NCBI RefSeq assembly: GCF_014191055.1
Contig: NZ_JACHWB010000004.1
Location: forward strand, 372,001 to 436,000
Direction of reading: 5' to 3'
Length of the DNA stretch: 64,000 nucleotides
DNA from: Microvirga lupini
GTDB taxonomy: Bacteria; Pseudomonadota; Alphaproteobacteria; Rhizobiales; Beijerinckiaceae
In this document: positions 28,741 through 55,622 of the stretch, one piece after another
Layout of the letters: every line of letters starts with the position of its first letter
How positions within the stretch are numbered: the first letter of the stretch is position 1
Notes under the pieces: generated by a model
The model's database searches: none
The model's input: the letters and a program-made list of their open reading frames with translations, nothing else
What the model was told of the DNA's origin: nothing
Translations under genes and position numbers: made by a program

Positions 28741-31674
28741 ATGGCCCGTGGATCCCTTGTGGCGGGTGCCCGCATCCGTGTCCGTGACGCCGAATGGGTG
28801 GTCGGCCACGTCGAGCCCAGCCCCCTGTCCGGCAATGTGATCCATGCCGTCGGCCTGTCCGGCGTCGTGCGCGACAAGGCGGCGATCTTCGTCGAGACGG
28901 TTGAAAAGGTGCGGGGGCGCGGGATCGAGGTGGTCGATCCGGCCAACGTCACCCTCGTGGCCGACGACTCCTCCGGCTACACCGACACCCTGCTCCACCT
29001 TGAGGCTGCCCTGCGGAAGTCCGCCCCCACGGGCGAGGCGATCCAGGTGGCCGGCAAGGCCGCCATCGACGACCTGGATTTTCAGCTGGAGCCCGTGCGC
29101 CTTGCCTTGAAGGCGCCCCGCGCCCGCATCCTGATCGGCGACGACGTCGGCCTGGGCAAGACCCTGGAGGCGGGCCTGCTCACCTCGGAGCTGATCCTGC
29201 GCCGCCGCGCCAAGCGGATCCTGGTCGTCGCCACCAAGGCGATGCTGGCCCAGTTCCAGCACGAGTTCTGGACCCGCTTCTCGGTGCCGCTCGTGCGCAT
29301 CGACAGCGACAAGATCCGCCAGATCCGCGCCCGGATCCCGCTCAACCACAACCCCTTCGACCAGTTCGACAAGGCGATCATCTCGGTCGACACCCTCAAG
29401 AACGACCTCCAGTATCGCACCGCGCTGGAGAAGGCGTGGTGGGACCTGATCATCATCGACGAGGCCCACAACGTCGCCGAGCGCCGGGGCGCCGGCGGGG
29501 TGAGCCAGCGCAACCAGCTGGCGGAGCGCCTGGCGTCCCGCTCGGACGCGCTGGTGCTCATGTCGGCCACGCCGCATGACGGCTCCCGCCGCAGCTTCGC
29601 AAGCCTGATGCGGATGCTGGACCCAACCTCCATCGCTGATCCCGACAGCTACGGGCCGGAGGACATCAAGGGCCTGTTCGTGCGCCGCTTCCGCACCACG
29701 CCCTCCGTCCGCGCCGCCCTGAAGAGCAAGGTCCAGAAGCGCGTCACCAACCGCATCAACTTTGCGCCGTCGCCGGCCGAGGAGGCCGCCTACGAGATCC
29801 TGGCCAATCTCGACCTGCAGCAGGACAAGGCCGCCCGGAACCGCGGGCAGCGCCTGTTCAAGACGCTCCTGGAGAAGGCGCTGTTCTCCAGCCCGGCAGC
29901 CTGCGCCGAGACGCTCGACAAGCGGATCAAGGCGCTCATCAAGGAGGGCAGCCCTGAAGCGGAGGCCGACGCCTCCGCCCTCGGGAAGCTGCTCGACGCG
30001 GTCCAGGCCATCGGGGCCGAGGACTTCACCAAGTACCAGCGCCTGCGCAAGCTGCTCGCCGACATCAAGTGGTCGCCGAAGAAGAAGGACGACCGCATCG
30101 TCGTCTTCTCCGAGCGCATTGCCACCTTGGAATGGCTCGCCGAGCGCCTGCGCGCGGATCTCGGGCTGAACGAGGAGCAGGTGAAGACCCTGCACGCCTC
30201 CGGTGGCGACGCCGACCGCAAGGCGCAGGAGGTGGTCCGCGACTTCGGGCTGGAGCGCTCGCCGATCCGCATCCTGCTCGCGTCCGACATGGCGTCCGAG
30301 GGCCTGAACCTCCACTACCTGTCGCGCAAGCTCGTTCACTTCGACATCCCCTGGGCACTGCTCACGTTCCAGCAGCGCAACGGCCGCATCGACCGTTACG
30401 GGCAGGAGCACCAGCCTCACATCTGGTACCTCGTCGCCGAGCCGGCCCAGCCGAAGATCCGGGGCGACCTGCGCGTCCTCGACCGCCTGATCGAGAAGGA
30501 CGAAGCGGCACAGGACAGCATCAGCGATCCTTCCGCATTCCTTGGCACCAACGACGAACTGGAGCAGGAGGACGTCGTCGCGCAGGCCATCGAGAAGGGC
30601 CTGTCCGCGGAGCAGTTCGAGGCCGAGATGGACGCCCGGGCGGATGCTTCGGACGCTGCGGGCGACGACGCCTACGCCGCCCTGGAGGCGTTCTTCGAGA
30701 TCGCCCAGCCGGAAGCGCCTGCCGTCCCGGCCGAGCGCGAGGCGGGGCGCCCGTCGGTGTTCGAGACGACCTTCGACTTCACGACGGCGGCGCTCGAACG
30801 GGTGAAGGCGTGGAAGCACGACCTGGAGTACGAGGTCGACCGGAAGGACCGGGTGATCACTCTGCCGATTCCGGACGACTTCCGCGAGCGTTCGGACTTC
30901 GGCGGACGGGCGGCCCGTGCGGTCGACGCGCGCTTCATGCCGCCCGAGGCCGAGCCACAGGACGGACGGGTCAGGCTGACCGACAACCGCTCGCTGATGA
31001 ACGACCGCATCGTCGCCTCGCGCCAGGGCGCCGGCGGTGGCTGGCCGGAGTTCCAGTACCTGTGGGACGTCCATCCGGCGGTCGACTGGCTGGCGGACAA
31101 GATTTCGGGCGTGTTCGGCCGCCAGAACGCGCCGGTGGCGCGCCTGGTCGGTGTTCTTGAGCCCAAGCAGACGGCGTTCGTCTTCAACGGCGTTGTTCCG
31201 AACCTCAAGGGGCAGCCCCTGGTGGACGAGTGGCCCGTCGTCCTGTTCTCCGGATCCGAGTTCGCAGGGATCGAGACGGTGCGCGAGTTCCTCGCGCGGG
31301 CTGGTCTTGGCCGAACTGAGATCCCCAACATCGGCGCAACCCGTCTCGACGACGTGCAGAAGCTGGTGGAGGAGGCGGTCAACCGCGCCCAGACCTACGT
31401 GCATGAGGCCCGGAAGCGCTTCCAGAACGAACTCGATGGGGAGCTGCTGGCCATTGACGAGCGGCTTGAAAAGCTGCGCGCCCAGCACCGTCAAGCAATC
31501 AGAGACCTGTTCGGCCGCCTGGAGGACAACGCCATCCAGCGCAGCAAGAAGGCGCGCCAGGAGGAGAAGGTGGAGCAGATCTTCGCGTCGTGGTGGGACT
31601 GGATCAAGAAAACGCGCGAGACGCCGAACGATCCCAATCCTTACGTCCGCCTTGTAGCCGTGTTTCGGGGGTGA
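28741..31674 (+). CDS. SNF2-type helicase (DrmD-like), first gene of the defence operon
   Basis: This 977-residue SF2/SNF2 ATPase has Walker A in GDDVGLGKTLEAGLL (about residue 136), motif II in IIIDEAHNV (about 240) and motif III in MSATPHDG (about 276). The C-terminal lobe carries LLASDMASEGLNLHYL and QQRNGRIDRYGQ (about 545). A long tail (residues 620-977) has coiled-coil-like segments (ALEAFFEIA...RHQAIRDLFGRLEDNAIQRSKKARQEEKVEQ). The overall type resembles DrmD, the SNF2 helicase of class 1 DISARM, and helicases of BREX loci. The next gene starts 4 bp after the stop. It likely translocates on or remodels invading DNA together with the methyltransferase. Confidence 0.8.
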   Translation: MARGSLVAGARIRVRDAEWVVGHVEPSPLSGNVIHAVGLSGVVRDKAAIFVETVEKVRGRGIEVVDPANVTLVADDSSGYTDTLLHLEAALRKSAPTGEAIQVAGKAAIDDLDFQLEPVRLALKAPRARILIGDDVGLGKTLEAGLLTSELILRRRAKRILVVATKAMLAQFQHEFWTRFSVPLVRIDSDKIRQIRARIPLNHNPFDQFDKAIISVDTLKNDLQYRTALEKAWWDLIIIDEAHNVAERRGAGGVSQRNQLAERLASRSDALVLMSATPHDGSRRSFASLMRMLDPTSIADPDSYGPEDIKGLFVRRFRTTPSVRAALKSKVQKRVTNRINFAPSPAEEAAYEILANLDLQQDKAARNRGQRLFKTLLEKALFSSPAACAETLDKRIKALIKEGSPEAEADASALGKLLDAVQAIGAEDFTKYQRLRKLLADIKWSPKKKDDRIVVFSERIATLEWLAERLRADLGLNEEQVKTLHASGGDADRKAQEVVRDFGLERSPIRILLASDMASEGLNLHYLSRKLVHFDIPWALLTFQQRNGRIDRYGQEHQPHIWYLVAEPAQPKIRGDLRVLDRLIEKDEAAQDSISDPSAFLGTNDELEQEDVVAQAIEKGLSAEQFEAEMDARADASDAAGDDAYAALEAFFEIAQPEAPAVPAEREAGRPSVFETTFDFTTAALERVKAWKHDLEYEVDRKDRVITLPIPDDFRERSDFGGRAARAVDARFMPPEAEPQDGRVRLTDNRSLMNDRIVASRQGAGGGWPEFQYLWDVHPAVDWLADKISGVFGRQNAPVARLVGVLEPKQTAFVFNGVVPNLKGQPLVDEWPVVLFSGSEFAGIETVREFLARAGLGRTEIPNIGATRLDDVQKLVEEAVNRAQTYVHEARKRFQNELDGELLAIDERLEKLRAQHRQAIRDLFGRLEDNAIQRSKKARQEEKVEQIFASWWDWIKKTRETPNDPNPYVRLVAVFRG

Positions 31675-31677
31675 ACC

Positions 31678-34600
31678 ATGCCGATTGAACTCGCCGGTAT
31701 TTCGAACGAAAACGAATTCTACTCCGAGCACTACCTCTCGACGATCTTCGAGGGGGACATCGAGGAGACCTTCCGCGGGTGGAAGGAGGCCGAAAAGGCT
31801 GGGGAGACTCCGCCGAACAAGCTCATGGAGAAGGTCGGCGTCCAATGGCGTCGCCTGTCCGCGGCCTACCTTGAGGAGCGGGACGACCGCAAGCGCCTCC
31901 TGATCGGGCGCACGTTCGCTCATGAGATGCTGACCGCCTTGGGCTTCGAGCGGCATTCGGAGCTCGTTGTCGACGCTGAGGGCAAGCTCATCCCCGTTCT
32001 GGCTCGCCGTTCGTTCCACGACGGCCGTGACGCCGTCTGGGTGGTCGAGGTGCCGTCGCCGGCCGGAGCCGACTTCGAGGTCGACCCGCTGCAGATCCGG
32101 TTCCGGTGCGAGCAGTTCGAGGGGATCGCAACCGCGGAGGAGGTCGAGAAGCGCCGCAAGGACAATGCCGAGGCGGCCCTCGTGAAGGGCATCTTCGCGC
32201 TTGAGGCGCCCCCACGCTTCGTCGTGCTCCTCAGCATGTCCCAGGCAGTCCTGATCGACCGTAACAAGTGGTCCGACAGCCGCCTGCTGCGTTTCCGCTT
32301 CCCGGAAATCTTCGGGCGCGGCGACAACGCAACCGTCGGCGTAACGGCGGCTCTGCTGCATGCCGCGTCGCTGGCTCCGGGATCGGGAACCTCGCTCATC
32401 GACCGGATCGACGAGGAAAGCCACCGGCATGCCTTCGGCGTCTCGCAGGATCTCAAGTACGCACTTCGGGAGGCCATTGAACTTCTCGGCAACGAGGCGG
32501 CGGAACTGATTGTCGCCAAGCGCCGGGCCAACAAGGAAGGTGTTTTCACGGGAGGGAATGCCCTCGACGCGGAAAAGCTCACGACCGAATGCCTGCGGTA
32601 CATGTACCGCCTTCTCTTCCTGTTCTTCATCGAAGCGCGTCCGGAGCTTGGCTTCGCGCCCATGAAGGCGAAGGCATACCGCATGGGCTACAGCCTGGAG
32701 AGCCTGCGCGAGCTTGAGTTGGTTCCTCTGGAGACGGACGAGGACCGCAACGGCCATTATATCTCGGACACCCTCGACACGCTGTTCAGCGTGGTCTTCG
32801 AGGGAACACCCGGAGCCGGCGTGGCGAAGGGGGACCTCACCGAGGAGTTCACCTTCAACCCGGTCCGGGCGCGCCTATTCTCGCCGGAGGCCATCGGGAC
32901 CTACTTGCGGGGACTGCAGTTCCGCAACGCGACCATGCAGCGGATCATCGAGCTCCTGTCGCTGTCGCGCGGTGACCGCACACGGGGGCGCGGCCGCATC
33001 TCGTATGCCCAGCTCGGGATCTCGCAGCTTGGCGCCGTCTACGAGTCGTTGCTGTCCTTCTCGGGCTTCTTCGCGTCCGAGGATCTGATTGAGCTCAAGC
33101 CCGCGGGCAAGCCGGCACCGGGGCCGCTGGAGGCAGCCTTCTTCGCCCCCCGGAGCCGGTCTGATAACTTCGACGAGAGCGAGATTGTCTACGAGGGGAC
33201 GACGGCGAAGATCTTCCCCAAGGGCACGTTCATCTATCGCTTGGCCGGACGCAACCGCGAGAACTCGGCCTCATTCTACACGCCTGAGCCCCTGGCCCGC
33301 GTCATGGTGAAGTACGCGCTGAAGGAGCTCCTTGCCGGCAAGAAGGCGGATGACATCCTGAAGCTGCGTATCGTCGAGCCCGCGATGGGATCGGCAGCAT
33401 TCCTGGTCGAGGTGGTCAACCAACTCGCCGACAAGTACCTGGAACTCAAGCAAGTGGAGCTCAAGAAGCGGATCCCGCACGAGCGCTATGCCTTGGAGCG
33501 TCAGAAGGTTCGCGCCTACCTGGCTGACCGGAACGTGTTCGGCGTCGACCTCAATCCGGTTGCCGTTGAGCTCGGGCAGGTGTCCCTCTGGCTCGATTGC
33601 CTCCATGAGGGTGGGTTTGCGCCCTGGTTCGAGGACCAAGTTCACGCCGGAAACTCGCTAGTGGGCGCCCGCCGGGCCGTATTCCCCGTATCCTCGCTCG
33701 ATGCGCGAAAGGAGGAGGACCGCTGGCACAAGCGTGGGCCGCGCGAGATCGGATGGTCTGGGGAGGCTCGCAAGGCGGAAGAGGTCTGGCACTTCCTTCT
33801 GCCAGATCCCGCCATGAGCACGTACGACCAGAAGGTGGTTCGTCCGCTTGCGCCCCAGGCCTGGGCTACGTTCGCTGAGTGGCGGCGCGACTTCATGCGT
33901 CCACTTGATAAGGATGAGATCGCAACCGTGAAGCGACTGTCCAGCGTGGTCGATACCCTGTTCGAGGATGTCGCAGATCGCCTTCAGGAAGTACGCAAGG
34001 AGGTTAATGACGAGATCTCGATCTGGCCGGCGGAACCGCAGCCAAACGAGCGGCACGTCGACTTCCAGGAGAAAATTCGCCGTCTGGAGAGCTTCCAAGG
34101 CCAGGGCGTTAAGAATGCCGTGTCGTGGCGTCGGCTCCGCAGCGCGATGGATGCATGGTGTGCTCTCTGGTTCTGGCCCATCGACCAAGCCGACAAGCTC
34201 CCGTCGAGGACAAAGTTCTTCCAAGACCTTGACCTCCTCCTCTCCCAAGGTGTCGACAACCAGAAGGTCGTCACTGGCGCGTTCGCGACTGGTGCATCTC
34301 AGGGGCGCTTGTTCGAGACCGTCACGCTGCCTGGCGCTAAAGGTTCAGGGGCCCTGTTTAGGACGGAGGAGCGCGTTGTTGAACTGCGAAAGAACGATCT
34401 GTTCGAAGATGTGAACGTCGATCAGCTAATCAAGGCATCGCCCTGGCTGCCGACCGCGATGGACGTCGCACACCGTCGCCGGTTCATGCATTTCGATCTT
34501 GAGTTCGCAGATGTGATGCGTGAGCGAGGGGGCTTTGATCTTGTCATTGGCAACCCGCCATGGCTAAAGCCTGCTTGGATTGATGCACATATCCTAAGCG

Positions 34601-36483
34601 AGCACGAGCCGACCTTCGGTATTCGAGAGGTTTCTGCCGCCGAGGTCGAGAAGGCTAAACCGCGTCTGTTCGAGCAGAACTCTCGCCTCAAGTCGTCCTA
34701 TCTTGATGACTACGTTGAAATCGGAGGATTGCAGGCGTTTCTGTCATCGCCAAACTGCTATCCCTTCGCCGGTGGAGGGCAAGCAAATCTGTACAAGTGT
34801 TTTATCGATCTGACCTTCCGGATCACCGCGAAGGGCGGCTTTGGAGCCCTCATCCACCAGGACAATCATCTCTCAGATCCGGAAGGCGGACCGCTGCGTC
34901 GTGCTTGGTATCGTCGCATTAGGCGGCATTATCACTTCCGGAATGCCATCACCCGGAGGATGTTCGCCGAGGTTAGCGACCGTAAAACCTTCAGCCTTAA
35001 TGTTTACGGCGGGCAAGAGCAGGAAATTGGGTTCGACCACGCCGCCTCACTTCTGCTCCCTACAATGATTGATGAGAGCTACAGTCACGATGGTGTCGGC
35101 TCCGTACCTGGCCTCAAGCGGCCTGAGGGCGGGTGGGACACTCGCGGCCATCGGAAGCGTATCGTACGAATCGACGATGAGGTTCTTCAGATATTCGCCT
35201 CAGTCATTGAGGAAGAAGGAACGCCAGCCGACTGTACCCGCTTCCTGTTCCCATTTTCGACGGAAACTCTTCAAATATTCAAGTCGTTTGGATTTGAACG
35301 TAGCTCTTTCGCTGTAGCTGCGAGATCTTTCCAGTCAAAGGGGCTGTGGGACGAAGGAGCTTCGACCAAGCGAGACAAGACTTTGGAGGTGAGGCCTCAC
35401 TTTCCTGAGTCTGACCTTGAACTTATACTTACGGGTCCGCTGATCTATGTGGCCAATCCCTTCTACAAGTGTGTTAGCTCAGCTGGATCAAAGGAGGTCG
35501 AAGTCGATCTGCAGGAGATCCCGAGTGAGTACATCCCTCGCGCAAGATATGGACGGATATGCAGTCGAGAGAGATTCCGACAAGGAATTCCCAGCTTGAG
35601 TTGGGATACAAAGAGATTGCATACAGATGTCTATAGAATTGCGTTTAGGAGGATGATGAGCCCTCCAACGGAACGGACATTAATATCTACGCTAATTCCA
35701 CCTGGCGTATCCCATGTGAACACAGTGGAGAGCATCGCATTTGATGACGAGAACAATCTCGTGTCTGCCTATCCACTATGGATATCGCTTCCGTTCGACT
35801 TCCTCGTAAAAGCCACAGGCATGTCCGACTTCCGGGAATCCAGTCTTAAGTTTTTCCCTTGGGCTTCTGTTGCGGACACAGCCAAACATCGCGCACTGCG
35901 ACTTTCCTGTTTGACCTCATCCTATTCGGAAATATGGGATCGATGCGCCGCGACCTTGGACGTCCTTCCATGGTCCTCGCGGGACCCGCGCCTAGCGGTC
36001 GAAACTGCGCATTCCGACCCAAGTCTGACGAAGTGGAGTCGTGATGCAGGCCTGAGGTCTGACTTCGCGCGGCGCCAAGCGCTGGTCGAGATTGATGTCC
36101 TTGTGGCCCAAGCGCTCGGGCTTACCCTCGATCAGCTCATAGAGATGTATCGCACGCAGTTTCACGTGCTGGACGAGAATGAGCGAGGCACATGGTACGA
36201 CCGCAACGGCCGCATCGTTTGGACCTGCTCGAAGGGCTTGTCGGGTATAGGTTGGCGGAAGCTGGATGGTCGTAAGCCGAGTGCCAAGGAGTGGGTGGAG
36301 ACTTACGCTAACCTAGGGGAGGGCGAGCGTCTGGAGTGCCACCTGCCAGTCGAGTTCCTGCCTGACGGGCCGAAAACTGTTCATCGTGTCTACGAGGCGC
36401 CGTTCGTCACGTGCGACCGCGAGGCTGATTACCGAACCGCATGGGCCTTCTTCGAAGCCCAGAACCAGAAGAAAGCCGCCTGA
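31678..36483 (+). CDS. N6-adenine DNA methyltransferase (PglX/DrmMI-like)
   Basis: This 1601-residue gamma-type adenine methyltransferase has motif I as RIVEPAMGSAAFLVEV (about residue 566, the DPAxGSGxF site with small changes) and motif IV as LVIGNPPWLKPAW (NPPW, about 958). The N-terminal 500 residues form the helical region seen in Eco57I/PglX-type enzymes. The part after NPPW (960-1430) should be the target-recognition domain. Its DNA (about 34.5-36.0 kb) is visibly A+T-richer than the rest of the gene. In DISARM and BREX such enzymes mark host DNA as self. It is co-directional with only 3 bp between neighbours on either side. No separate nuclease motif is obvious. Confidence 0.88.
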   Translation: MPIELAGISNENEFYSEHYLSTIFEGDIEETFRGWKEAEKAGETPPNKLMEKVGVQWRRLSAAYLEERDDRKRLLIGRTFAHEMLTALGFERHSELVVDAEGKLIPVLARRSFHDGRDAVWVVEVPSPAGADFEVDPLQIRFRCEQFEGIATAEEVEKRRKDNAEAALVKGIFALEAPPRFVVLLSMSQAVLIDRNKWSDSRLLRFRFPEIFGRGDNATVGVTAALLHAASLAPGSGTSLIDRIDEESHRHAFGVSQDLKYALREAIELLGNEAAELIVAKRRANKEGVFTGGNALDAEKLTTECLRYMYRLLFLFFIEARPELGFAPMKAKAYRMGYSLESLRELELVPLETDEDRNGHYISDTLDTLFSVVFEGTPGAGVAKGDLTEEFTFNPVRARLFSPEAIGTYLRGLQFRNATMQRIIELLSLSRGDRTRGRGRISYAQLGISQLGAVYESLLSFSGFFASEDLIELKPAGKPAPGPLEAAFFAPRSRSDNFDESEIVYEGTTAKIFPKGTFIYRLAGRNRENSASFYTPEPLARVMVKYALKELLAGKKADDILKLRIVEPAMGSAAFLVEVVNQLADKYLELKQVELKKRIPHERYALERQKVRAYLADRNVFGVDLNPVAVELGQVSLWLDCLHEGGFAPWFEDQVHAGNSLVGARRAVFPVSSLDARKEEDRWHKRGPREIGWSGEARKAEEVWHFLLPDPAMSTYDQKVVRPLAPQAWATFAEWRRDFMRPLDKDEIATVKRLSSVVDTLFEDVADRLQEVRKEVNDEISIWPAEPQPNERHVDFQEKIRRLESFQGQGVKNAVSWRRLRSAMDAWCALWFWPIDQADKLPSRTKFFQDLDLLLSQGVDNQKVVTGAFATGASQGRLFETVTLPGAKGSGALFRTEERVVELRKNDLFEDVNVDQLIKASPWLPTAMDVAHRRRFMHFDLEFADVMRERGGFDLVIGNPPWLKPAWIDAHILSEHEPTFGIREVSAAEVEKAKPRLFEQNSRLKSSYLDDYVEIGGLQAFLSSPNCYPFAGGGQANLYKCFIDLTFRITAKGGFGALIHQDNHLSDPEGGPLRRAWYRRIRRHYHFRNAITRRMFAEVSDRKTFSLNVYGGQEQEIGFDHAASLLLPTMIDESYSHDGVGSVPGLKRPEGGWDTRGHRKRIVRIDDEVLQIFASVIEEEGTPADCTRFLFPFSTETLQIFKSFGFERSSFAVAARSFQSKGLWDEGASTKRDKTLEVRPHFPESDLELILTGPLIYVANPFYKCVSSAGSKEVEVDLQEIPSEYIPRARYGRICSRERFRQGIPSLSWDTKRLHTDVYRIAFRRMMSPPTERTLISTLIPPGVSHVNTVESIAFDDENNLVSAYPLWISLPFDFLVKATGMSDFRESSLKFFPWASVADTAKHRALRLSCLTSSYSEIWDRCAATLDVLPWSSRDPRLAVETAHSDPSLTKWSRDAGLRSDFARRQALVEIDVLVAQALGLTLDQLIEMYRTQFHVLDENERGTWYDRNGRIVWTCSKGLSGIGWRKLDGRKPSAKEWVETYANLGEGERLECHLPVEFLPDGPKTVHRVYEAPFVTCDREADYRTAWAFFEAQNQKKAA

Positions 36484-36485
36484 AG

Positions 36486-39400: not shown

Positions 39401-42400
39401 ATGCACCCGGGTGGGCTGCGAAGGATCCATGGGACTGGACGGCGATGCGCGCCGCAACCGTTTCCGCACCCGGATCCTCACCAAGGGACGCATCAAGCGG
39501 GTTATCGCGGCGGAGCACACCGGTCTGCTGGGGCGTGAGCAGCGGCAGGAAGTCGAACGGCGGTTCATGACGGATGACCGCAAGACCTGGTATCCGAACC
39601 TGCTCGCCGCGACGCCGACGCTGGAAATGGGCATCAACATTGGCGACCTGTCCACCCTGGTGCTGTGCTCGGTTCCGCCCGAGCAGGCCAACTATGTCCA
39701 GCGCATCGGGCGCACCGGACGCCGTGACGGCAACTCGCTCAACGTGACCGTTGCGACCGCCAGGCCACATGACATGTGGTATTGGGCCGATCCGGAGGAA
39801 ATGATCTCCGGCAAGGTGCGGACCCCGGGCGTCCACCTGAAGGCGGTGGCGATCCTGAAGCGCCAGTTCGCCGCCTACACGCTGGATCGCTGGGTGTCGG
39901 AGGCTGGCGCCGGCGTGAAGAGCTACGGCAAGGTCCGCGATGCGCTCAACGCCATAACGGCGAAGAACCAGAATGCCTTCCCGCTGTTCTGGTTCAAGTT
40001 CGTCGAGGAGAAGGCCGAGAGCCTGTTCAACGATTTCTGTCGCCTGTTCCCACGGCTTCTGGAGGACACCGAGGCCTTGGAGGCCCTCCGGGCGTTCGCG
40101 TTCGGGGGTGAGAACGACAGTCTCGCCTATGCCGTCGCGAACGAGTTCGCCGGCGTCTCCGCCGAGATCTCCGCAATCCAGGAGCGCATGGACGCCGCAT
40201 CGGCCATGGCGAAGAAGCTCAAGGCCGAGCAGCCGCCGCCCACCGACCTGAAGGAGCGCCTGGACGCGCTTGACCGCGAGAAGCGGGCCCTGGGGATGAT
40301 CAAACGCGAGATCAACAGCGGCGACATCGTCGGCTTCCTCACGGACCGGGGCATTCTCCCGAACTATCTCTTCCCCGAGCAGGGCGTCACGCTAAAGTCG
40401 ATCCTGTATCGCACGGAGGTTGCGAGCGAGGAGGACAAGGCCCCGACCATCACGGAGTACATGAGGCCAGCGGCGGCGGCCCTGGGCGAGTTCGCCCCAA
40501 GCGCGCTGTTCTATGCCGACAGCCGCAAGCTCAAGATCGATCAAATCGATCTTTCGGCCTCGCCCATCGAACATTGGCGGGTCTGCCCGGACTGCACCCA
40601 CATGGCGCTCGCGCAGGCCGAGACGACGGAGGAGGGCTGTCCTTGCTGCGGCTCCAAGATGTGGGCCGACAAGGGCGCTCGGCGGCCCATGATCCGCCTG
40701 AAGCAGGTCTACGCCGTCGGCAACGACCGGAACACCCGAATCGGCGATGACGGGGACGAGCGTGAGACCCGCTACTTCGACCGCGACTACCTGCCTGCGT
40801 TCGAGCGCAACCAGATTGGAAACGCCTATGCGGTCGAGGACGGCGCCCTGCCGTTCGCCTTCGAGCATCTCCGGCGCTGCACCTTCCGCGAGGTCAACTT
40901 CGGCGAAAACGGCGACACGCCGTCCGGGCAGAAGGTGGCCGGCGAGCGCCGCCTCGGGCACGGGTTCTCCCTCTGCCGTTCCTGCGGACGGGTTCAGGAT
41001 CCCGAAGAAATCCGCCGCATGCGCCGGGACGGCTCCAAGAAGGGGCTCCATCAACCGCGTTGCCATGAGGTGAATTCCGAGGATGACGACACCTACGTCT
41101 CGGTCGTCTACCTGTACCGGGAGTTCACATCCGAGGCGATCCGGTTCCTGCTGCCGCTCGCCTCATCCAAGGACCACGACAAGGTGAAGTCCCTGCGCGC
41201 GGCGATGGACCTCGGCCTGCGCCTCCACTTCAAGGGCAAGGTCGACCATCTTCGCACGTCGCTGGTGGAGACGGCCGACGGCCCGCTCACCCGGCGGTAC
41301 CTGTACCTCTACGACACCGTCCCCGGCGGAACGGGCTATCTCAAGCAGCTCGCCACCAGGCCGGACGAGATGCAGGACGTGTTCGCGCTTGCCTTGGCCC
41401 ACATGCGTGACTGCGTCTGCAACACGGATCCGCGCAAGGACGGCTGCCCGCGGTGCATCCGCTCGCATGCCTCGACGTTCGGCCGCGGGGAGGTGTCGCG
41501 CGACACGGCCAGCGGCATCATCGCCGAAATCCTGGCTGACTGGGACAAGCTGCGCCCCGTCGACAACGTCGATGGCGTGAAGCTGAACAAGGCCCTTGAG
41601 AGCGAGCTTGAGGCGATGTTCGTCGCCCGCTTCAGGGACAACGTGCAGGCTGCGGGGGGCAAGTTCATCAAGGCCGTGGTCAACGCACAGCCCGGATTCT
41701 TCGTGAAGCACGGGGATGGCGAGTGGCGGCTCCAGCCGCAGGTGGACCTCAGCAAGCATTTCCCGGGTGTGCCCAAGACCCGCGCCGACTTCGTCCTCTG
41801 GCCGGCCGTCCCGACGCCCGGCTCAAAGCCCGTCGCGATCTATCTCGACGGGTGGCAATGGCATCACGACAGGATCCCCAACGACCTGCGGGTGCGCCAG
41901 GAGCTCATCCGGTCCGGACACGTCCTGGTGTGGTCGCTGACCTGGGCCGATGTCGAGACCGCGTCCGGAGGTGAGGCGAAGAAGCACTTCTGGGATCCTT
42001 CCTCGTCGCTGCCGGGACCCATGCTCAATCGCCTTACGGATGGAGAGCAGACCCTGACGGACCTCAGGGCCGTCCTGGAGGCCGCGCCGTTCGATCAGTT
42101 CCTGCGGTACGTCCGCTGCCCGGACATGACCGCTTGGACGGGAAGGGCGTGCGCGCTCTCGACCGGTCTGTTCCTGTCCGGCATGCAGGCCGGCAAGGAT
42201 CCCAAGGCCGTCATGGCGGCCACGGAAGAGTTCAGCGGTGACGCCGGGCGGGCGACGCTGGAGGCGATGCCGGGCACGCCACTCTATGGCTACAGGCTCG
42301 ACAAGGGCGTGGGGTGCGTGACGGTCGCGGTCGAGCAGCCGTGGCGGCCGCCCGAATGGCCCCAGGGCCGCACGCTGACCACGGTCGTCGGGTTCGAGCA

Positions 42401-42842
42401 CCGCCTGGCGGAGTCGCCGGAAGCCAAGAAGGCCTGGAATGGCGCCCTGCGGCTTCTTAACCTGCTTCAGTTCGGAGGCCCCTTGTACGTCGGCTGCACG
42501 GAGGAGATCGGACTTGATCCCGCTCCCCGGCCGGCGCCCGAGCAGGAGGATGCCTACAGCGAGGCGTGGGCCGACGTGGAGCGCCTAGTTCTCGCCGACC
42601 TGCTGCCGCTCGTGCGGAAGCTGAGGCAGAAGGTTCCGCCGGTCACGCCGCCGGAGGCCCTCTACGAGGTGGCGGATGCGGAAGGAAACGCCATCGGAAC
42701 CTTGGAGCTTGCCTGGCCCGAGCAAAAGAAGGGGATCGTGCTTGAACCCGACCTCGCACGCCTCTTCCCGGGCTGGACGATCATCGTCTATGCCGGGCAG
42801 GACAACATCTTTGAAGACGATCCAGTGGGAGAGCCGGCATGA
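36486..42842 (+). CDS. Giant DEAD-type helicase with DUF1998 (DrmA/DrmB- or DruE-like)
   Basis: This 2118-residue protein has Walker A in VATGTGSGKTECFLL (about residue 98), motif II in LIVDELHTFDGAQG (about 225), SATLGG (about 260) and a motif VI QRIGRTGRRDG (about 1071). Zinc-binding cysteine clusters are spread between about residues 480 and 1510 (CRACGG, CTEC, CDTCG, CPDC...CPCCGS, CRSCG). The DUF1998 domain ends in DTVPGGTGYLKQL and CVCN...DGCPRCIRSH (about 1610-1660). A further segment (DFVLWP...YLDGWQWHHDRI, about 1770-1795) resembles a Vsr/PD-(D/E)XK nuclease. Helicase and DUF1998 are separate proteins (DrmA, DrmB) in DISARM but are fused here, as in Druantia DruE. Confidence 0.85.
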   Translation: MLPSILARQVRAGVEDQLRASFSPSTKAFENIIESFLDEPEALIKGPWLSLDMPFRRSERAEEFFPDVPLGFRPYRHQERAFERLSGIRPKSTLVATGTGSGKTECFLLPVLDSCAKAKGEPGIKAIIIYPMNALATDQARRIAKLIDKNPRLKGLRAGIYADERPQNASSVMTPTWIIDSRDALVKNPPDILLTNYKMLDYMLVRPEEREIWEKNRPDTLRHLIVDELHTFDGAQGTDLASLIRRLKDRLKMRSGDLCCVGTSATLGGPEAIEDLVAYAREIFDEPFDASSVVLEDRQSVNEYLEDIQITALDVPAEDQITALVRKTDDLTPEELVRLAFGFWLKAQPPRDVSATDWRVSLGHMLDGHVFFQTLLKILKGRPRSYTDIKEEFRRNKLYRGLGDDHLDALIDTLTALIAHARRIYPDAVDESGKPIPMPFFNVRHQLWLRELRRMVANVGTTPRLQHHDDLGFEEQQRALPVIHCRACGGAGWATVTPNDERRPLGAELQEVYSAYFGYSDRLRFIFRESPVPRIKRRVVGQTRSAWLCTECLVPHYGETCPEGGCGSCRASTDKLIEVFVHKPGRLTDEKFRVDHDCTFCGAPNGLGILGAQSVTLVTGMVATMFGSDHNDDPKLLTFSDSVQDAAHRAGVLQARNASNVFRAGLSRFVCEAVAPNMETVEAEAPKAMQKALGDKTPDGDFVATYLPADMEWRNDYKALLATDELPPGSKLPEYLQQRLAWESFAELTFRSRLGATVERTGLAAPHTDLSLVGPLCEEIAARMRNDLGMASDAISQEDLLRFLVGLLDHMRARGAVATDITRLYVAREANWYAVVRAHPHGRSLPQYAPAAPKPTFPSNRVLRGFEPVATDGIGGWYVPWFLKWFEHKLVLTGDLYRDFYNLMFKVLENRNLVERLPIGVGKDVAATCAWGLKPETVRVHAKSATVRCDTCGNLHHIPAAQEFVDVWTGMRCTRVGCEGSMGLDGDARRNRFRTRILTKGRIKRVIAAEHTGLLGREQRQEVERRFMTDDRKTWYPNLLAATPTLEMGINIGDLSTLVLCSVPPEQANYVQRIGRTGRRDGNSLNVTVATARPHDMWYWADPEEMISGKVRTPGVHLKAVAILKRQFAAYTLDRWVSEAGAGVKSYGKVRDALNAITAKNQNAFPLFWFKFVEEKAESLFNDFCRLFPRLLEDTEALEALRAFAFGGENDSLAYAVANEFAGVSAEISAIQERMDAASAMAKKLKAEQPPPTDLKERLDALDREKRALGMIKREINSGDIVGFLTDRGILPNYLFPEQGVTLKSILYRTEVASEEDKAPTITEYMRPAAAALGEFAPSALFYADSRKLKIDQIDLSASPIEHWRVCPDCTHMALAQAETTEEGCPCCGSKMWADKGARRPMIRLKQVYAVGNDRNTRIGDDGDERETRYFDRDYLPAFERNQIGNAYAVEDGALPFAFEHLRRCTFREVNFGENGDTPSGQKVAGERRLGHGFSLCRSCGRVQDPEEIRRMRRDGSKKGLHQPRCHEVNSEDDDTYVSVVYLYREFTSEAIRFLLPLASSKDHDKVKSLRAAMDLGLRLHFKGKVDHLRTSLVETADGPLTRRYLYLYDTVPGGTGYLKQLATRPDEMQDVFALALAHMRDCVCNTDPRKDGCPRCIRSHASTFGRGEVSRDTASGIIAEILADWDKLRPVDNVDGVKLNKALESELEAMFVARFRDNVQAAGGKFIKAVVNAQPGFFVKHGDGEWRLQPQVDLSKHFPGVPKTRADFVLWPAVPTPGSKPVAIYLDGWQWHHDRIPNDLRVRQELIRSGHVLVWSLTWADVETASGGEAKKHFWDPSSSLPGPMLNRLTDGEQTLTDLRAVLEAAPFDQFLRYVRCPDMTAWTGRACALSTGLFLSGMQAGKDPKAVMAATEEFSGDAGRATLEAMPGTPLYGYRLDKGVGCVTVAVEQPWRPPEWPQGRTLTTVVGFEHRLAESPEAKKAWNGALRLLNLLQFGGPLYVGCTEEIGLDPAPRPAPEQEDAYSEAWADVERLVLADLLPLVRKLRQKVPPVTPPEALYEVADAEGNAIGTLELAWPEQKKGIVLEPDLARLFPGWTIIVYAGQDNIFEDDPVGEPA

Positions 42843-45025
42843 CCGCGCGGAAGCCTGACGTTCACATCATGATCGACGCGCTGCTGTCGCAGAATCGGCT
42901 GCCCCGCGCGGTTCAGGACAAGGCGGCGAAGCTCATCCTCAAGCTCAAGAACGATCCCGCCGCGAACGGGATCAACTTCGAGAGCATCGAGGGTGCCCGT
43001 GATCGCCACATGAAGTCGGCTCGGATCGACCAGGGCCACCGCGCCATCGTGTACGACCGCGGTGGTGCCCTGATCGTGCTGTGGATGGACAAGCACGACG
43101 ACGCTTACCGCTGGGCGCGTGACCGCATCATCGATGTCAACCCGCTCACCGCCTCGGTGCAGGTCACCGACATGAGCCTGGTCGAGGTTCCCCCCGCGGC
43201 CCAGGCCGCAGGGGCCGCCGAGAAACCCCGGTTCGCCGATTACAGCGATGCCAACCTGGTTGCCGTCGGCGTTCCCGAGGCGCTGCTGCCGGCCATCCGG
43301 GCCATCCGGACCGACGAGGAACTTGAAGCCAACAAGCCGGGTATCCCGGCCGACGCTTACGACGCCCTGGTTTGCCTGGCGGCCGGCTACTCTGTTGAGG
43401 AGACGCTGGAGGAGTTGGAGCGCACCACCGCTTCCAACATTTCCGCGGACGACTTCGCCGCGGCTCTCAAGACCCCGGAAAGCCAACGCTCGTTCTGGTT
43501 CGTCGAGGACGACCAGGAGCTCCAGAAGGTGCTCGACGAACCGCTGGAGTTCTGGCGCATCTTCCTCCATCCATCGCAGCGCAAGCTCGTGAACCGGCAG
43601 TGGAATGGCCCAGTTCTCGTCAGGGGTGGCGCCGGCACCGGCAAGACCGTGGTCGCGATGCACCGCGCCCGCTACCTGGCCGGCCGCCTGATCACCGCGA
43701 AGGACGCGTTGGGCAAGATCCTCTTTACGACCTTCACTTCCAACCTCGCGGCTGATGTCAAAGCCAACCTGATCAATCTTTGCTCTCAGGAGGAGATGGA
43801 CCGGATCGAGGTCATGCATCTTGATGGATGGGTGACCGATTTCCTCCGTCGCCAGGGCTATCAGCGTGAAATCCTGTACGGGGATGATCCCCGCCAGACG
43901 GATGCATGGGATGCCGCCTTCCGGGTCCATGGCAAGGACATTGGGCTGAGCCTGGAGTTCCTGCGGGACGAATGGCGCCAGGTCGTTCAGGCGAACGGCA
44001 TCTCCGACATGCCTGGATACCTCAGGGTGCAGCGGACCGGGCGTGGCACATCCATCGACCGGAAGACCAAGGAAAAGGTCTGGGCCGTGTTCGCGGCCTA
44101 CCGCGCCAGGCTCGACGAGGAGCAGCTCTCCGAGCCCGAGGACGCTTATCGGCACGCCCGCGATATCCTGCGTGCCAAGCCGGCCCTGCTGCCCTACCGG
44201 GCCATCATGGTCGACGAGGCGCAGGACCTTGGGGCCGAGGCCTTCCGGCTGATTGCGGAGATCGCTCCAAAGGCCGATGGCGTCGCCGGCCCCGACAGCC
44301 TGTTCATTGTCGGGGATGCGCACCAGCGCATCTACGGCCGGCGGGCGGCCATGTCGAAGTGCGGCATCAATGTGCGGGGCCGCAGCCGCAAGCTCCGGAT
44401 CTGCTACCGCACCTCCGACGAGATCCGGCGTTTCGCTGAGGCCATCATTCAGGGCGTTACGGTCGATGACCTCGACGACTCCACCGACGACCTGAAGGGC
44501 TACCGCAGCCTCTTCCACGGTCCGCGGCCGGACATCGCCATCACCTCCTCTCCGGAGGACGAACTGTCGGCGCTCGTGGAATGGATCGAGCGCTGCAAGG
44601 CAGACGGCATCGAGGAGAGCGAGATCTGCGTCCTTGCGCGCACGAACGATCTCGTGAAGGCAGCGGCCGACGGGCTGAAGGCCCTCGGCTTCAAGGTGAA
44701 CATGCTCGCGCGGAAGAAGGCGGACGACCGGACCAAGGCCGGATTGCGCCTTGGCACGATGCATCGCGCCAAAGGGCTGGAGTTCGCGGCTATCGCCATC
44801 GTCGATGTCAACGACGGTGTGATGCCACCGCGCTGGCTCTTAGATGCCGCGCCTGATGCCGCGATCAGGCGGCAGGTCATTGAGGCGGACAAGGCGCTCC
44901 TGCACGTCTCGTCCACGCGGGCCAAGAAACGCCTTTTCGTAGCGACTTCGGGGGATGCGAGCGACCTGCTGCCAAAAGCAACGGCGGGTGATCGGAAGGC
45001 AGCACAGCAGGCGAGGGCAGCGTGA
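42839..45025 (+). CDS. UvrD/Rep-type helicase with RelE-like N-terminal domain
   Basis: This 728-residue superfamily 1 helicase has Walker A in VRGGAGTGKTVVAMHRA (about residue 264), motif II in MVDEAQDLGAEAF (about 458), FIVGDAHQRIYG (about 490), RICYRTSDEIRRF (about 520), TMHRAKGLEF (about 640) and STRAKKRLFVAT (about 692). The first 90 residues (AAKLILKLKNDPAANGINFESIEGARDRHMKSARIDQGHRAIVY...VLWMDKHDDAYRWARDR) look like a RelE/ParE-type toxin fold. That fusion also occurs in some stand-alone UvrD-like proteins. It overlaps the giant helicase by 4 bp (ATGA). UvrD-type helicases are not part of standard DISARM. Confidence 0.85.
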   Translation: MTARKPDVHIMIDALLSQNRLPRAVQDKAAKLILKLKNDPAANGINFESIEGARDRHMKSARIDQGHRAIVYDRGGALIVLWMDKHDDAYRWARDRIIDVNPLTASVQVTDMSLVEVPPAAQAAGAAEKPRFADYSDANLVAVGVPEALLPAIRAIRTDEELEANKPGIPADAYDALVCLAAGYSVEETLEELERTTASNISADDFAAALKTPESQRSFWFVEDDQELQKVLDEPLEFWRIFLHPSQRKLVNRQWNGPVLVRGGAGTGKTVVAMHRARYLAGRLITAKDALGKILFTTFTSNLAADVKANLINLCSQEEMDRIEVMHLDGWVTDFLRRQGYQREILYGDDPRQTDAWDAAFRVHGKDIGLSLEFLRDEWRQVVQANGISDMPGYLRVQRTGRGTSIDRKTKEKVWAVFAAYRARLDEEQLSEPEDAYRHARDILRAKPALLPYRAIMVDEAQDLGAEAFRLIAEIAPKADGVAGPDSLFIVGDAHQRIYGRRAAMSKCGINVRGRSRKLRICYRTSDEIRRFAEAIIQGVTVDDLDDSTDDLKGYRSLFHGPRPDIAITSSPEDELSALVEWIERCKADGIEESEICVLARTNDLVKAAADGLKALGFKVNMLARKKADDRTKAGLRLGTMHRAKGLEFAAIAIVDVNDGVMPPRWLLDAAPDAAIRRQVIEADKALLHVSSTRAKKRLFVATSGDASDLLPKATAGDRKAAQQARAA

Positions 45026-45882
45026 TGAGTTCAAGCACTTCCGCTGCCTTTGCGGATCCGGCCATTGATGAGGCTCTGCAGCGATTCATGCTGCCGGCAT
45101 TCTGGTCTGGCTTCAAGGACGAAGCTCCCTTCGTCCATCCACAGGATCGCCCGGTCATCGCCAAGTCTCCCCATGGAGGGTGGCTTGCGACGGCCGCCGC
45201 CGAGAACTTCGACACCGTCGTTCAGACGGACAGCCTCGGTGTCGGAGATGACCGGTTCTATTTCTCGCTTCTCCCTGTCCCATATGCAGGCGACCTCGCC
45301 CGGGCTGACATCTTCATCCTCCTGCTGAACCCGGGTGGTGGCGGCGTTTTCGACTTTCATGTCGAGTATCGCTGCCCCTCTTGGCGGGATCGTGTCCTGG
45401 GCAACCTCTCCCAGGCCGTCCACGGGATGGAGTTCCCCAACCTCAACCTGGATCCAGAGTTTTGCTGGACAGGCGGCTATCAGTGGTGGGAGCGCAAGCT
45501 GAGGGCCGTCGCCATGGAGCTTGTCCCTCTGTGTGGGAGCTACCGCAATGCGCTGCGCGAGTTGTCTCGACGCGTCGCATGCATTGAGCTTGTGCCCTAT
45601 CACTCCACATCTTTTAACGGGCATAAACTCCTTGAGGTCCTTCCCTCGACCCTCCAAGCCCGGCGCTATGTTCGCGATGTACTCCTGCCGCGGGCGCAGG
45701 GGGACGAACTCAGCATCATCGTGACCCGCCAGAGCAAGACCTGGGGCCTTCCTGCACAGGAGGGGGTGCCAAGCATAGTCCATTACACGGGCCAACAGGC
45801 ACGCGGGGTGCATTTCGGACCCACCACAACAGGCGGGCGCGAGATCCTGCGGCGGATCAGGAAAACGGGACCTCTCAGCTAG
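45025..45882 (+). CDS. Unknown protein, possible UDG-like fold; fifth gene of the operon
   Basis: This 285-residue soluble protein has the central segment ADIFILLLNPGGGGVFDFHVE (about residues 95-115), similar to the hydrophobic strand and turn in proteins with a uracil-DNA-glycosylase-like fold (LLLNPG...). CIELVPYHSTSFNGHKL (about 190-206) may be the second conserved loop. It starts on the last base of the UvrD stop (ATG at 45025), so it is coupled to the operon. No family can be named with confidence; enzymatic assignment is speculative. Confidence 0.6.
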   Translation: MSSSTSAAFADPAIDEALQRFMLPAFWSGFKDEAPFVHPQDRPVIAKSPHGGWLATAAAENFDTVVQTDSLGVGDDRFYFSLLPVPYAGDLARADIFILLLNPGGGGVFDFHVEYRCPSWRDRVLGNLSQAVHGMEFPNLNLDPEFCWTGGYQWWERKLRAVAMELVPLCGSYRNALRELSRRVACIELVPYHSTSFNGHKLLEVLPSTLQARRYVRDVLLPRAQGDELSIIVTRQSKTWGLPAQEGVPSIVHYTGQQARGVHFGPTTTGGREILRRIRKTGPLS

Positions 45883-45894
45883 ACCGGGAAAGTC

Positions 45895-46290
45895 ATGAAG
45901 AAGCGTGAACCAAAGAAGCCATCCCGCCTCGGGTTGGAAATCGAGGCGGCCGTGGAGCGCGACCCGCGTTTCGAGCGGCATCAGCCCAACCGGCTCTACC
46001 AGTGCACCTTTCGCACCGTGGAGGGGCGCGAGGTTTTCGCTTTCGAGCGAGTCACGCTGGATGCGATCCGATTCTGGCTGCCGCCGACGGAGGCCGTCAA
46101 GAAGGCCGTGACCGCAGAGGGCATCGTGGTGCCGGAGATCAGCATCCCTTACCCGGATCGGAATGATCCTGAGCGCTATGGGCGGCTATCAAATCTCTTG
46201 GGTGTTCCCGAACTCAAGGATGAGCCGCTGCTTCCTGTTCCCATCATGTCGGCGGATCAGGCCATCCGCATCTTGGCGGCTCTGCCCTGA
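45895..46290 (+). CDS. Small unknown protein, last gene of the operon
   Basis: This 131-residue protein has a basic N-terminus (MKKREPKKPSRLGLE) and a mixed alpha/beta remainder (NRLYQCTFRTVEGREVFAFERVTLDAIRFWLP). It starts 12 bp after the previous stop on the same strand, so it probably belongs to the same transcript. No family was recognised. It might be an accessory or regulatory subunit. Confidence 0.6.
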   Translation: MKKREPKKPSRLGLEIEAAVERDPRFERHQPNRLYQCTFRTVEGREVFAFERVTLDAIRFWLPPTEAVKKAVTAEGIVVPEISIPYPDRNDPERYGRLSNLLGVPELKDEPLLPVPIMSADQAIRILAALP

Positions 46291-46493: not shown

Positions 46494-46979
46494 ATGAACG
46501 TGAAGAGTTTTACTGCTCCACGGGTGGCAGCAGCGCTTTGGGTGCTGCTCATCCCAGGACATTCCTATGCCGGCGGCGACTTTCCGGTGGCATCCTGCAA
46601 GTCATGGAACGGCACGGTTGTCGAGCGCTTGGGCATCGACACGTCCGCCGCGACGATGAGGGGCATCATCACCAAGGCTGATCTTGAGGAATACTGCGAG
46701 CGGGATCCTGGCGGCGAGACGAAGCAATACGGCGGTAAGCTCACGACAGGGCAATGCGTCTCCCGATACCAGAAGACTGAGAGAAACATCGTGCTGGCAG
46801 CACAGGCCGACTGCCGTGCGGGGACCATCCAGTTCCGCTACGGCAGCCAGGCGCCACGGAAGGTCAGGTTTCCGCTTGGGGAGGAGGCGGACACGTCTTG
46901 CGCTTCCGGCCTGCCACCATTGATCGAGCAATTCAAGATGCTCTGCCCAACGGCGGCACGGCGTATGGGTGTCGAGTAG
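46494..46979 (+). CDS. Small exported protein, unknown
   Basis: This 161-residue protein begins with a signal peptide (FTAPRVAAALWVLLIPGHSYAG, cleavage near residue 26). The mature part has five cysteines in pairs (SCKSW, YCERD, QCVSR, DCRAG, SCASG, LCPTA), consistent with periplasmic disulfides. A GTG at 46500, at better distance from GGGGGAG (46487-46493), is an alternative start. It is preceded by copy 1 of the repeated upstream element, which ties it to the two exported protease-like genes. It resembles nothing I can name. Confidence 0.65.
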   Translation: MNVKSFTAPRVAAALWVLLIPGHSYAGGDFPVASCKSWNGTVVERLGIDTSAATMRGIITKADLEEYCERDPGGETKQYGGKLTTGQCVSRYQKTERNIVLAAQADCRAGTIQFRYGSQAPRKVRFPLGEEADTSCASGLPPLIEQFKMLCPTAARRMGVE

Positions 46980-46993
46980 GGCTTGGATCGAAG

Positions 46994-47857: not shown

Positions 47858-47858
47858 T

Positions 47859-55535: not shown

Positions 55536-55622
55536 TGTGGAGCACCCTTGTGTAGCACAGGGCGCCACGAAGCCGTTGCACGGCTAGAATCCTATAGCAG
55601 AATCAAGGGATTGGGAAGGCAA

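What the first reader, a model, noticed from the sequence alone, without database searches (positions are those of the whole stretch)
28741..46290. Six-gene operon combining DISARM-, Druantia- and UvrD-type parts: a candidate undescribed defence system
Six genes run in one direction with gaps of at most 12 bp or small overlaps: SNF2-type helicase, N6-adenine methyltransferase, a 2118-residue DEAD helicase with DUF1998 and nuclease-like tail, RelE-like/UvrD helicase, and two unknown small proteins. Class 1 DISARM is known to use a SNF2 helicase (DrmD), methyltransferase (DrmMI), helicase (DrmA), DUF1998 protein (DrmB) and PLD nuclease (DrmC). Here DrmA and DrmB are fused and no PLD gene is visible. 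A UvrD-type helicase takes that place, and DruE-like size points to Druantia. The operon may be a DISARM-like modification-linked system with a different effector module.
Basis: partly seen in the sequence, partly recalled or inferred. Interest (0 to 1): 0.85.

Follow-up and report, generated by a model that had tools for sequence, protein, structure and literature searches.

The report
ARMADA II defence operon with glycosylase module
The operon is a copy of a recently published bacterial anti-phage system (ARMADA type II), extended by two undescribed genes, a probable base-removing DNA enzyme and a small partner protein, and the same kind of pair also turns up beside other systems of the same helicase family.

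Summary
The six genes are real, open and tightly packed. The first four are not undescribed: order, domains and all eight residues mutated in the published E. coli system match ARMADA type II, ArmA-B-C-D (Bell et al. 2025, PMC12458937). PADLOC 2023 predates it, hence its partial DISARM/Druantia hits.

Two things go beyond what I read of the paper. (1) ArmB carries a hypervariable segment where a target-recognition domain should lie: in 13 enterobacterial cassettes ArmA, C and D are 99% identical, this segment 38-82%, suggesting an exchangeable methylation specificity. (2) Genes five and six are a module. P0005 has a probable uracil-DNA-glycosylase (UDG) fold. P0006 is a rare small protein: all six loci I could read lie within 8 kb of a YprA-family system (ARMADA II, Druantia II or III), five carry a UDG-like gene, and in Methylobacterium bullatum both are one fused protein upstream of Druantia II.

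Best reading: a known system plus an accessory base-excision arm, perhaps against hypermodified phage DNA. Activity and substrate are inferred. New variant of a known kind.

The parts
28741..31674 (+). armA (P0001, 977 aa): SNF2/RapA-like (BrxHII/DrmD-like) helicase; Walker A K140, Walker B D240
   Evidence: Pfam SNF2-rel_dom, Helicase_C; 41.8% identical to E. coli ATCC 8739 ArmA, mutated residues conserved
31678..36483 (+). armB (P0002, 1601 aa): PglX/type-IIG-like N6-adenine methyltransferase; SAM motif G571, NPPW N959
   Evidence: Eco57I, N6_Mtase; PADLOC REase_MTase_IIG, residues 59-1594, 803 bits; residues conserved
35278..36027 (+). hypervariable segment of ArmB, about residues 1201-1450 (TRD-like)
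   Evidence: 38-58% identity to VF16 per 50 residues, against 68-100% over residues 1-1200; the same region varies in 13 enterobacterial ArmB; local GC 0.48-0.59
36441..42842 (+). armC (P0003; ATG at 36441 or 36486): YprA-family DEAD helicase with MZB/DUF1998 domain
   Evidence: DEAD E 5e-23, Helicase_C E 1e-10, MZB E 1e-10; K103 and D227 conserved, numbered from 36486
41631..42140 (+). Vsr-like nuclease segment in the ArmC C-terminus (approximate limits)
   Evidence: RxD[FY]...DGxxxH kept in 7 of 7 aligned ArmC; the Vsr assignment of this domain is from PMC12458937
42839..45025 (+). armD (P0004, 728 aa): N-terminal RelE/ParE-like domain (about 1-100) fused to a UvrD/GajB-like helicase; K269, D459
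   Evidence: UvrD-helicase E 2e-23; ParE_like E 0.025; conservation
45022..45882 (+). P0005, 286 aa: probable UDG-superfamily DNA glycosylase, overlapping the armD stop codon
   Evidence: AF2 model pLDDT 91.8; best structure matches are UDG superfamily; weak NCBIfam Brig1 hit, E 8.5e-4, far below cut-off
45895..46290 (+). P0006, 131 aa: small partner of UDG-like proteins; weak structural likeness to a double-wing DNA-binding domain

Best explanation
The locus is an ARMADA type II anti-phage system (armABCD, 28741-45025) with a two-gene accessory arm in the same operon (P0005-P0006). Proposed working: ArmB, an N6-adenine methyltransferase, marks host DNA at sites set by its exchangeable C-terminal segment. 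ArmA, ArmC and ArmD, three motor proteins with a Vsr-like nuclease on ArmC, then load on, unwind and destroy DNA that lacks the mark, without killing the cell. P0005 is a UDG-fold glycosylase that removes a damaged or, more likely, phage-modified base. P0006 binds it or the DNA and guides it, so that phage DNA whose bases are changed and which the ARMADA core reads poorly is still attacked. SHOWN HERE: gene content, conservation, the ArmB hypervariable segment, the P0005-P0006 pairing, a fused homologue, and recurrence beside YprA-family systems. SHOWN BY OTHERS for E. coli ARMADA II: defence, need for all four genes, non-abortive action. INFERRED: methylation specificity, the self/non-self rule, glycosylase activity and its substrate, the role of P0006, joint transcription.
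For: Order A-B-C-D with RelE-UvrD last is the stated hallmark of ARMADA II. Proteins are 34-42% identical to the E. coli ATCC 8739 set and all eight residues mutated in the paper are conserved. ArmB segment hypervariable in Enterobacterales (13 cassettes), in Microvirga and in Martelella versus Gemmobacter. P0005: UDG-like model; Brig1's own best structural match was the S. tokodaii family-4 UDG (PMC11078745 passages), which is also P0005's best VIA match. P0006-like: 4 of 397 family genomes and 2 plasmid records, 6 loci in all; 6 of 6 within 7.4 kb of ArmC, DruE2 or DruE3, 5 of 6 with a UDG-like gene, one fused in frame. Separately, a different UDG-like gene lies 0.5 kb past armD in some E. 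coli: 89 of 5426 genomes hold it, and 89 hold it contiguous with armD (lists not matched record by record).
Confidence: 0.6

Rival explanations
1. P0005-P0006 is a DNA-repair guard of the host, like Vsr beside cytosine methyltransferases: it removes deaminated or otherwise damaged bases made at methylated sites or in single strands that the helicases open.
For: Both Druantia II neighbours have base-repair or C5-methylation company: a C5-methyltransferase-like ORF (PCQ and ENV motifs, read by eye) follows the fusion in M. bullatum, and a Vsr (147.7 bits) lies between DruE2 and the pair in G736. The related UDG of Thauera lies about 4-6 kb from dcm and vsr genes.
Against: ArmB has the NPPW motif, typical of N6-adenine enzymes (recalled), so no 5-methylcytosine is expected from the window's operon; bacteria generally have housekeeping UDGs (recalled); the module is rare and seen near YprA systems.
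Confidence: 0.25
2. P0005 and P0006 are unlinked passengers of a gene-dense defence island and do not work with ARMADA.
For: Neighbours are other candidate defence genes (PDC-S11, PDC-M15A/B, PD-T7-4); P0005 is present or absent between armD and P0006; most P0005 relatives with a readable locus live elsewhere.
Against: P0005 overlaps the armD stop codon; P0006-like genes lie by three different YprA-family systems in 6 of 6 loci; a fused homologue exists.
Confidence: 0.2
3. P0005-P0006 is a toxin-antitoxin-like pair: a glycosylase that harms the cell's own DNA, held back by P0006 until infection.
For: Small partner gene next to a DNA-damaging enzyme fold; ArmD itself carries a RelE-like domain.
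Against: In-frame fusion in M. bullatum; P0006 without the enzyme in VF16; ARMADA II in E. coli is non-abortive (PMC12458937).
Confidence: 0.1
4. The six genes are one new hybrid defence system of DISARM and Druantia parts.
For: Partial hits to DrmD, DrmMI and DruE.
Against: The four-gene core is published as ARMADA II; genes five and six are missing from 30 and 29 of the 32 ARMADA II loci or fragments checked (a few are cut before or in armD).
Confidence: 0.03

Closest known systems
ARMADA type II (Bell et al. 2025, PMC12458937; E. coli NCTC 12900 and ATCC 8739)
   Same: Gene order armA-B-C-D, domains, RelE-UvrD fusion, Vsr-like tail on ArmC, all eight tested residues
   Different: The window adds P0005 and P0006 inside the operon; ArmC is only 34% identical to ATCC 8739. 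ATCC 8739 itself keeps only a 54-residue match to the other UDG-like gene found past armD in SMS-3-5
Brig1/Brig3 antiviral DNA glycosylases (PMC11078745, PMC13160076; abstracts and passages seen)
   Same: UDG-like fold; Brig1's best structural match is the S. tokodaii UDG; some Brig1 homologues lie near BREX/Pgl genes; Brig3 sits in a two-gene operon
   Different: P0005 scores 18.9 bits against a 230-bit Brig1 cut-off; the Brig3 partner BapA is a glucosyl hydrolase, P0006 is a different small protein; substrate of P0005 unknown
Class 1 DISARM
   Same: SNF2 helicase, methyltransferase and DUF1998-type helicase parts
   Different: Helicase and DUF1998 in one protein, Vsr-like tail, no PLD gene, RelE-UvrD present; DrmD model 355 of 610 bits
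Druantia II and III
   Same: YprA-family helicase of about 2000 aa; P0006-like and UDG genes sit beside Druantia II genes in Methylobacterium bullatum and G736
   Different: P0003 gives only partial DruE hits (at most 355 bits) against 2140 and 2088 bits for the DruE2 of G736 and the DruE3 of G274; none of the six proteins hit DruF, DruG, DruH or DruM in the rows shown

Membership tests
ARMADA type II | Strict order: BrxHII/RapA-like helicase, PglX-like methyltransferase, YprA-like helicase, then RelE-UvrD(GajB) fusion | tested here: met
   definition from PMC12458937
ARMADA type II | Residues needed for or contributing to defence in E. coli (ArmA K136/D236, ArmB G605/N971, ArmC K110/D234, ArmD K266/D454) | tested here: met
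   All eight conserved in the window by alignment to ATCC 8739, whose numbering fits the paper's residues
ARMADA type II | Vsr-type nuclease at the ArmC C-terminus | tested here: met
   Conserved RxD[FY]...DGxxxH pattern in 7 of 7; by alignment only, the domain assignment is the paper's
ARMADA type II | ArmC falls in the ARMADA II clade of the YprA tree | not tested
   No tree with ARMADA I references was built
ARMADA type II | Anti-phage activity | not testable with these tools
   Needs a phage assay
DISARM | Separate drmA and drmB genes and a PLD protein drmC | tested here: not met
   Helicase and MZB in one protein; no PLD hit in six proteins
DISARM | DrmD above the NCBIfam cut-off | tested here: not met
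   355 of 610 bits
Druantia | Full-length DruE match with type-specific partners | tested here: not met
   At most 355 bits in pieces, against 2140 and 2088 bits for DruE2 and DruE3; no DruF/G/H/M among the hits shown for the six proteins
UDG superfamily (P0005) | UDG fold | tested here: met
UDG superfamily (P0005) | Sequence match to Pfam UDG (PF03167) | tested here: not met
   No hit for P0005 or the eight relatives scanned at E up to 5; motif I aligns in register with another UDG set at hhalign E 0.06
Brig1 | NCBIfam NF047634 above cut-off | tested here: not met
   18.9 of 230 bits
MotA-type double-wing DNA-binding domain (P0006) | Double-wing fold | tested here: inconclusive

The most novel reading that the evidence does not exclude
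P0005-P0006 is a portable two-part base-excision arm shared by several YprA-family defence systems (ARMADA II, Druantia II, perhaps Druantia III). A small protein resembling the T4 MotA double-wing domain reads DNA whose major groove carries bulky base modifications, and a UDG-fold glycosylase cuts those bases out, covering the phages that methylation-reading systems cannot see. Together with the hypervariable ArmB segment, this would make ARMADA a machine with a constant motor core, a swappable self-mark and plug-in modules against modified phages.
Probability: 0.3. Interest if true: 0.82.

Novelty: new variant of a known kind. Interest (0 to 1): 0.58.

Why it matters
How ARMADA tells self from foreign DNA is not addressed in the parts of the paper that I read. 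A single swappable segment in ArmB, seen in strains whose other three proteins are nearly identical, makes this testable with long-read methylation data from E. coli. The glycosylase pair offers a concrete hypothesis for how methylation-linked systems cope with hypermodified phages, and the fused homologue beside Druantia II suggests that the pair is a functional unit rather than a chance neighbour.

Tried and rejected
Undescribed hybrid system: rejected for the core, which is ARMADA II. Whole six-gene unit conserved: rejected. P0005 always with ARMADA: rejected; 39 of 40 loci in the genome collection show none, and no ArmC-, DruE2- or DruE3-like protein lies in the 42 P0005- or UDG-type loci searched (39 of these plus L063, L064, L096); these loci are 3.9 to 20.9 kb long, so more distant systems would be missed. 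Shared conserved neighbours of P0005 relatives: no neighbour family recurred in more than 4 of the 39 loci clustered; a fortieth, L018, was dropped because no central ORF was called. P0005 in viral contigs: 43 pattern matches, none a relative by tblastn. Brig1 homologues by NF047634 in 249 genomes and 14 controls: nothing rang, uninformative. ImmA/IrrE-like protein of G222 in 289 class genomes: no match at E 1e-15; no positive genome was in the set, so uninformative. A3 profile in 199 family genomes: only the window's own genome. PDB by sequence for P0005, the second UDG set and P0006: no match. PHROGs: nothing useful. Foldseek PDB list for P0006 is led by unrelated PLP enzymes at E 0.07 or worse. 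Matches of about 145 bp of the E. coli UDG query in O157 genomes, first taken for gene remnants, proved by their position to be flanking non-coding sequence.

Not done: a YprA tree; checks of the 455 unlisted records; matching the 89 genomes with the 89 record by record; a search for other divergent UDG types beside ARMADA; a defence-gene scan of the neighbours of the 39 other P0005 loci.
Full report
OBSERVATION. Six ORFs on the + strand fill 28741-46290 with at most 12 bp between them. Pfam gives SNF2/Helicase_C (P0001), Eco57I/N6_Mtase (P0002), DEAD-Helicase_C-MZB (P0003), UvrD with a weak ParE-like N-terminus (P0004) and nothing for P0005 and P0006 at E 0.1. PADLOC gives DrmD 336 bits for P0001, a type IIG enzyme at 803 bits over nearly the whole of P0002, DruE1 355 bits in pieces for P0003, NERD-UvrD and GajB for P0004 and nothing for the last two. 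No NCBIfam cut-off is reached.

WHAT THE CORE IS. A literature search found Bell et al., a bioRxiv preprint of September 2025 (PMC12458937; I read parts 1-4 of 8 of the text, the figure legends and term searches). It defines ARMADA type II by a strict order: BrxHII/RapA-like helicase (ArmA), PglX-like methyltransferase (ArmB), YprA-like helicase with Vsr-type nuclease (ArmC), RelE-GajB/UvrD fusion (ArmD). In E. coli all four genes are needed and protection is non-abortive. I took the ATCC 8739 locus, which the paper also tested, and aligned it with the window, VF16, Martelella, Nostoc, Pseudanabaena and, except for ArmA, G252. The window is 41.8, 41.1, 34.4 and 42.2% identical to ATCC 8739 ArmA-D, and all eight residues mutated in the paper are conserved (window ArmA K140 D240, ArmB G571 N959, ArmC K103 D227, ArmD K269 D459). 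DISARM and Druantia membership fail on tested features. The core is therefore ARMADA II; a clade test by tree was not done.

OTHER ARMADA II LOCI. In the P0003 searches, near-full-length matches came in 2 of 298 family genomes (the window's own and G252), with a partial one in G222, and in 6 of 398 phylum genomes, the window included, with two partial ones; the other matches are short helicase-core ones, of Druantia type where I checked (one case). 30 plasmid records match at E 1e-100. A 16.2-kb E. coli cassette is found at 80% coverage or more in 513 of 5426 complete E. coli genomes.

ARMB CARRIES A HYPERVARIABLE SEGMENT. Between the window and Microvirga sp. VF16, ArmA, C and D are 92, 88 and 91% identical, but ArmB residues 1201-1450 drop to 38-58%. 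In 13 enterobacterial cassettes (12 E. coli, one Klebsiella; chosen by hand from the spread list and from plasmid hits, so not a random sample) mean pairwise identity is 99.7% (ArmA), 99.0% (ArmC), 99.2% (ArmD), and single pairs are 96-100% over ArmB 1-1000. Window means are 38-57% at ArmB 1101-1200 and 1351-1450, with 70-82% between; over 1150-1500 pairs range from 44 to 95%. Martelella versus Gemmobacter dips to 30% at 1401-1450; Martelella versus Haematobacter does not (96-98% there, lowest 72% at 1251-1300). The segment lies downstream of the NPPW motif, where PglX-type and type IIG enzymes carry their target-recognition domain (recalled). The paper's main text has no occurrence of 'TRD' or 'methylation', and its one 'target recognition' concerns zinc modules. 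I infer an exchangeable methylation specificity; that is not shown.

PRESENCE AND ABSENCE. P0005 is present in M. arabica (93% identical) and cleanly absent from VF16, where armD is followed after 58 bp by P0006. In VF16 and M. arabica P0006 is followed by an ImmA/IrrE-like metallopeptidase that I did not find in the window. Relatives of that peptidase lie between armB and armC in Haematobacter (two plasmids) and in G222, while a Martelella cassette with identical ArmD lacks it. In a census of 32 ARMADA II loci (some partial) P0005 occurs in 2, P0006 in 3 and the peptidase in 4. ARMADA II thus has accessory slots.

GENE SIX, P0006, AND THE PAIR. P0006-like genes occur in 4 of 397 family genomes and 2 plasmid records; the profile search raised 28 proteins, most on contigs I could not open. 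Six loci could be read. Window and M. arabica: P0005 then P0006 after armD. VF16: P0006 after armD, no UDG. G274 (an identical 122-aa protein on a contig of the same length is listed as Microvirga splendida): P0006-like, then a UDG-like gene with GITPG and HPSGAN motifs, 7.4 kb from DruE3. G736: DruG2-like, DruE2, Vsr, P0006-like, UDG. M. bullatum: one 422-aa ORF joins the UDG and the P0006-like domain in frame, followed after about 180 bp by a C5-methyltransferase-like ORF, DruF2, DruG2-like (48 bits) and DruE2. So 6 of 6 are beside or near a YprA-family system and 5 of 6 have a UDG-like partner. These are not six independent events: the three ARMADA cassettes are related, and so perhaps are the two Druantia II ones. 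The UDGs of G274, G736 and Thauera match Pfam UDG at E 1e-4 to 5e-4, below the curated cut-off; the fused one only at 0.15. Of 35 plasmid records with a relative of the G274 UDG, only M. bullatum is also among the two with a P0006-like gene, so this UDG type mostly occurs without P0006.

A SECOND UDG BESIDE ARMADA II. In E. coli SMS-3-5 and GPEC606 a 216-aa gene, named 'uracil-DNA glycosylase family protein' in some records, lies convergent about 0.5 kb past armD (Pfam UDG E 0.003, below cut-off). 89 of 5426 genomes hold it at 80% coverage or more and 89 hold armD plus this gene contiguously. 90 of the 485 matching records are at least 99% identical, so this is probably one lineage event. Most ARMADA II genomes of E. 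coli lack it. ATCC 8739 keeps a 54-residue match.

MECHANISM. Core: ArmB marks, ArmA/C/D destroy unmarked DNA (marking inferred, defence shown by others). Pair: base excision guided by P0006 (inferred). Brig1 homologues also occur near BREX/Pgl genes (PMC11078745), a precedent for glycosylases beside methylation-linked systems. Rivals and tests are listed in their sections. Papers holding both 'Druantia' and 'uracil-DNA glycosylase': one, a review of restriction glycosylases seen only in the listing. In the searches I saw no title, abstract start or passage that describes this pair; most of those texts were not read and supplements were not open to me.

VERDICT. Known core, new accessory module and a new, directly testable feature of ArmB.

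Noticed in passing
27465-28460 (-): Homologue of candidate defence family PDC-S11 (E 1e-124) with DUF4268, divergent from armA.
   Followed up: no
46898-48488 (+): PDC-M15A/M15B pair downstream of P0006 (E 7e-65 and 9e-86), where VF16 and M. arabica carry an ImmA/IrrE-like gene.
   Followed up: partly
60816-61598 (-): Homologue of anti-phage protein PD-T7-4 (E 4e-80).
   Followed up: no
48624-49358 (-), 53850-55568 (-), 57030-57677 (+): HEPN pEK499_p136-like protein, DUF6538/phage-type integrase and HNH protein downstream: a defence island with mobile-element genes.
   Followed up: no
L088:8129-8977, L051:4280-5137, L059:17166-18281, L002:11269-12384: Related ImmA/IrrE-like metallopeptidases inside or just after ARMADA II operons (31-90% identical): a second accessory gene of ARMADA II.
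   Followed up: partly
L080, L085, L087 past armD: E. coli UDG-like gene convergent with armD in 89 of 5426 genomes; ATCC 8739 has only a 54-residue match left.
   Followed up: partly
L093:17389-19182: Tsukamurella ARMADA-like operon with armC split in two and a second UvrD-type helicase gene overlapping armD.
   Followed up: no
L092:9001-24126: Cylindrospermopsis plasmid with the order armC-armD-armA-armB, against the strict order stated for ARMADA II.
   Followed up: no
L075:6880-12169: A same-genus genome (G690) with an ArmD-like protein (34%) next to an ArmA-like one (29%) but no ArmC found in the stretch.
   Followed up: no
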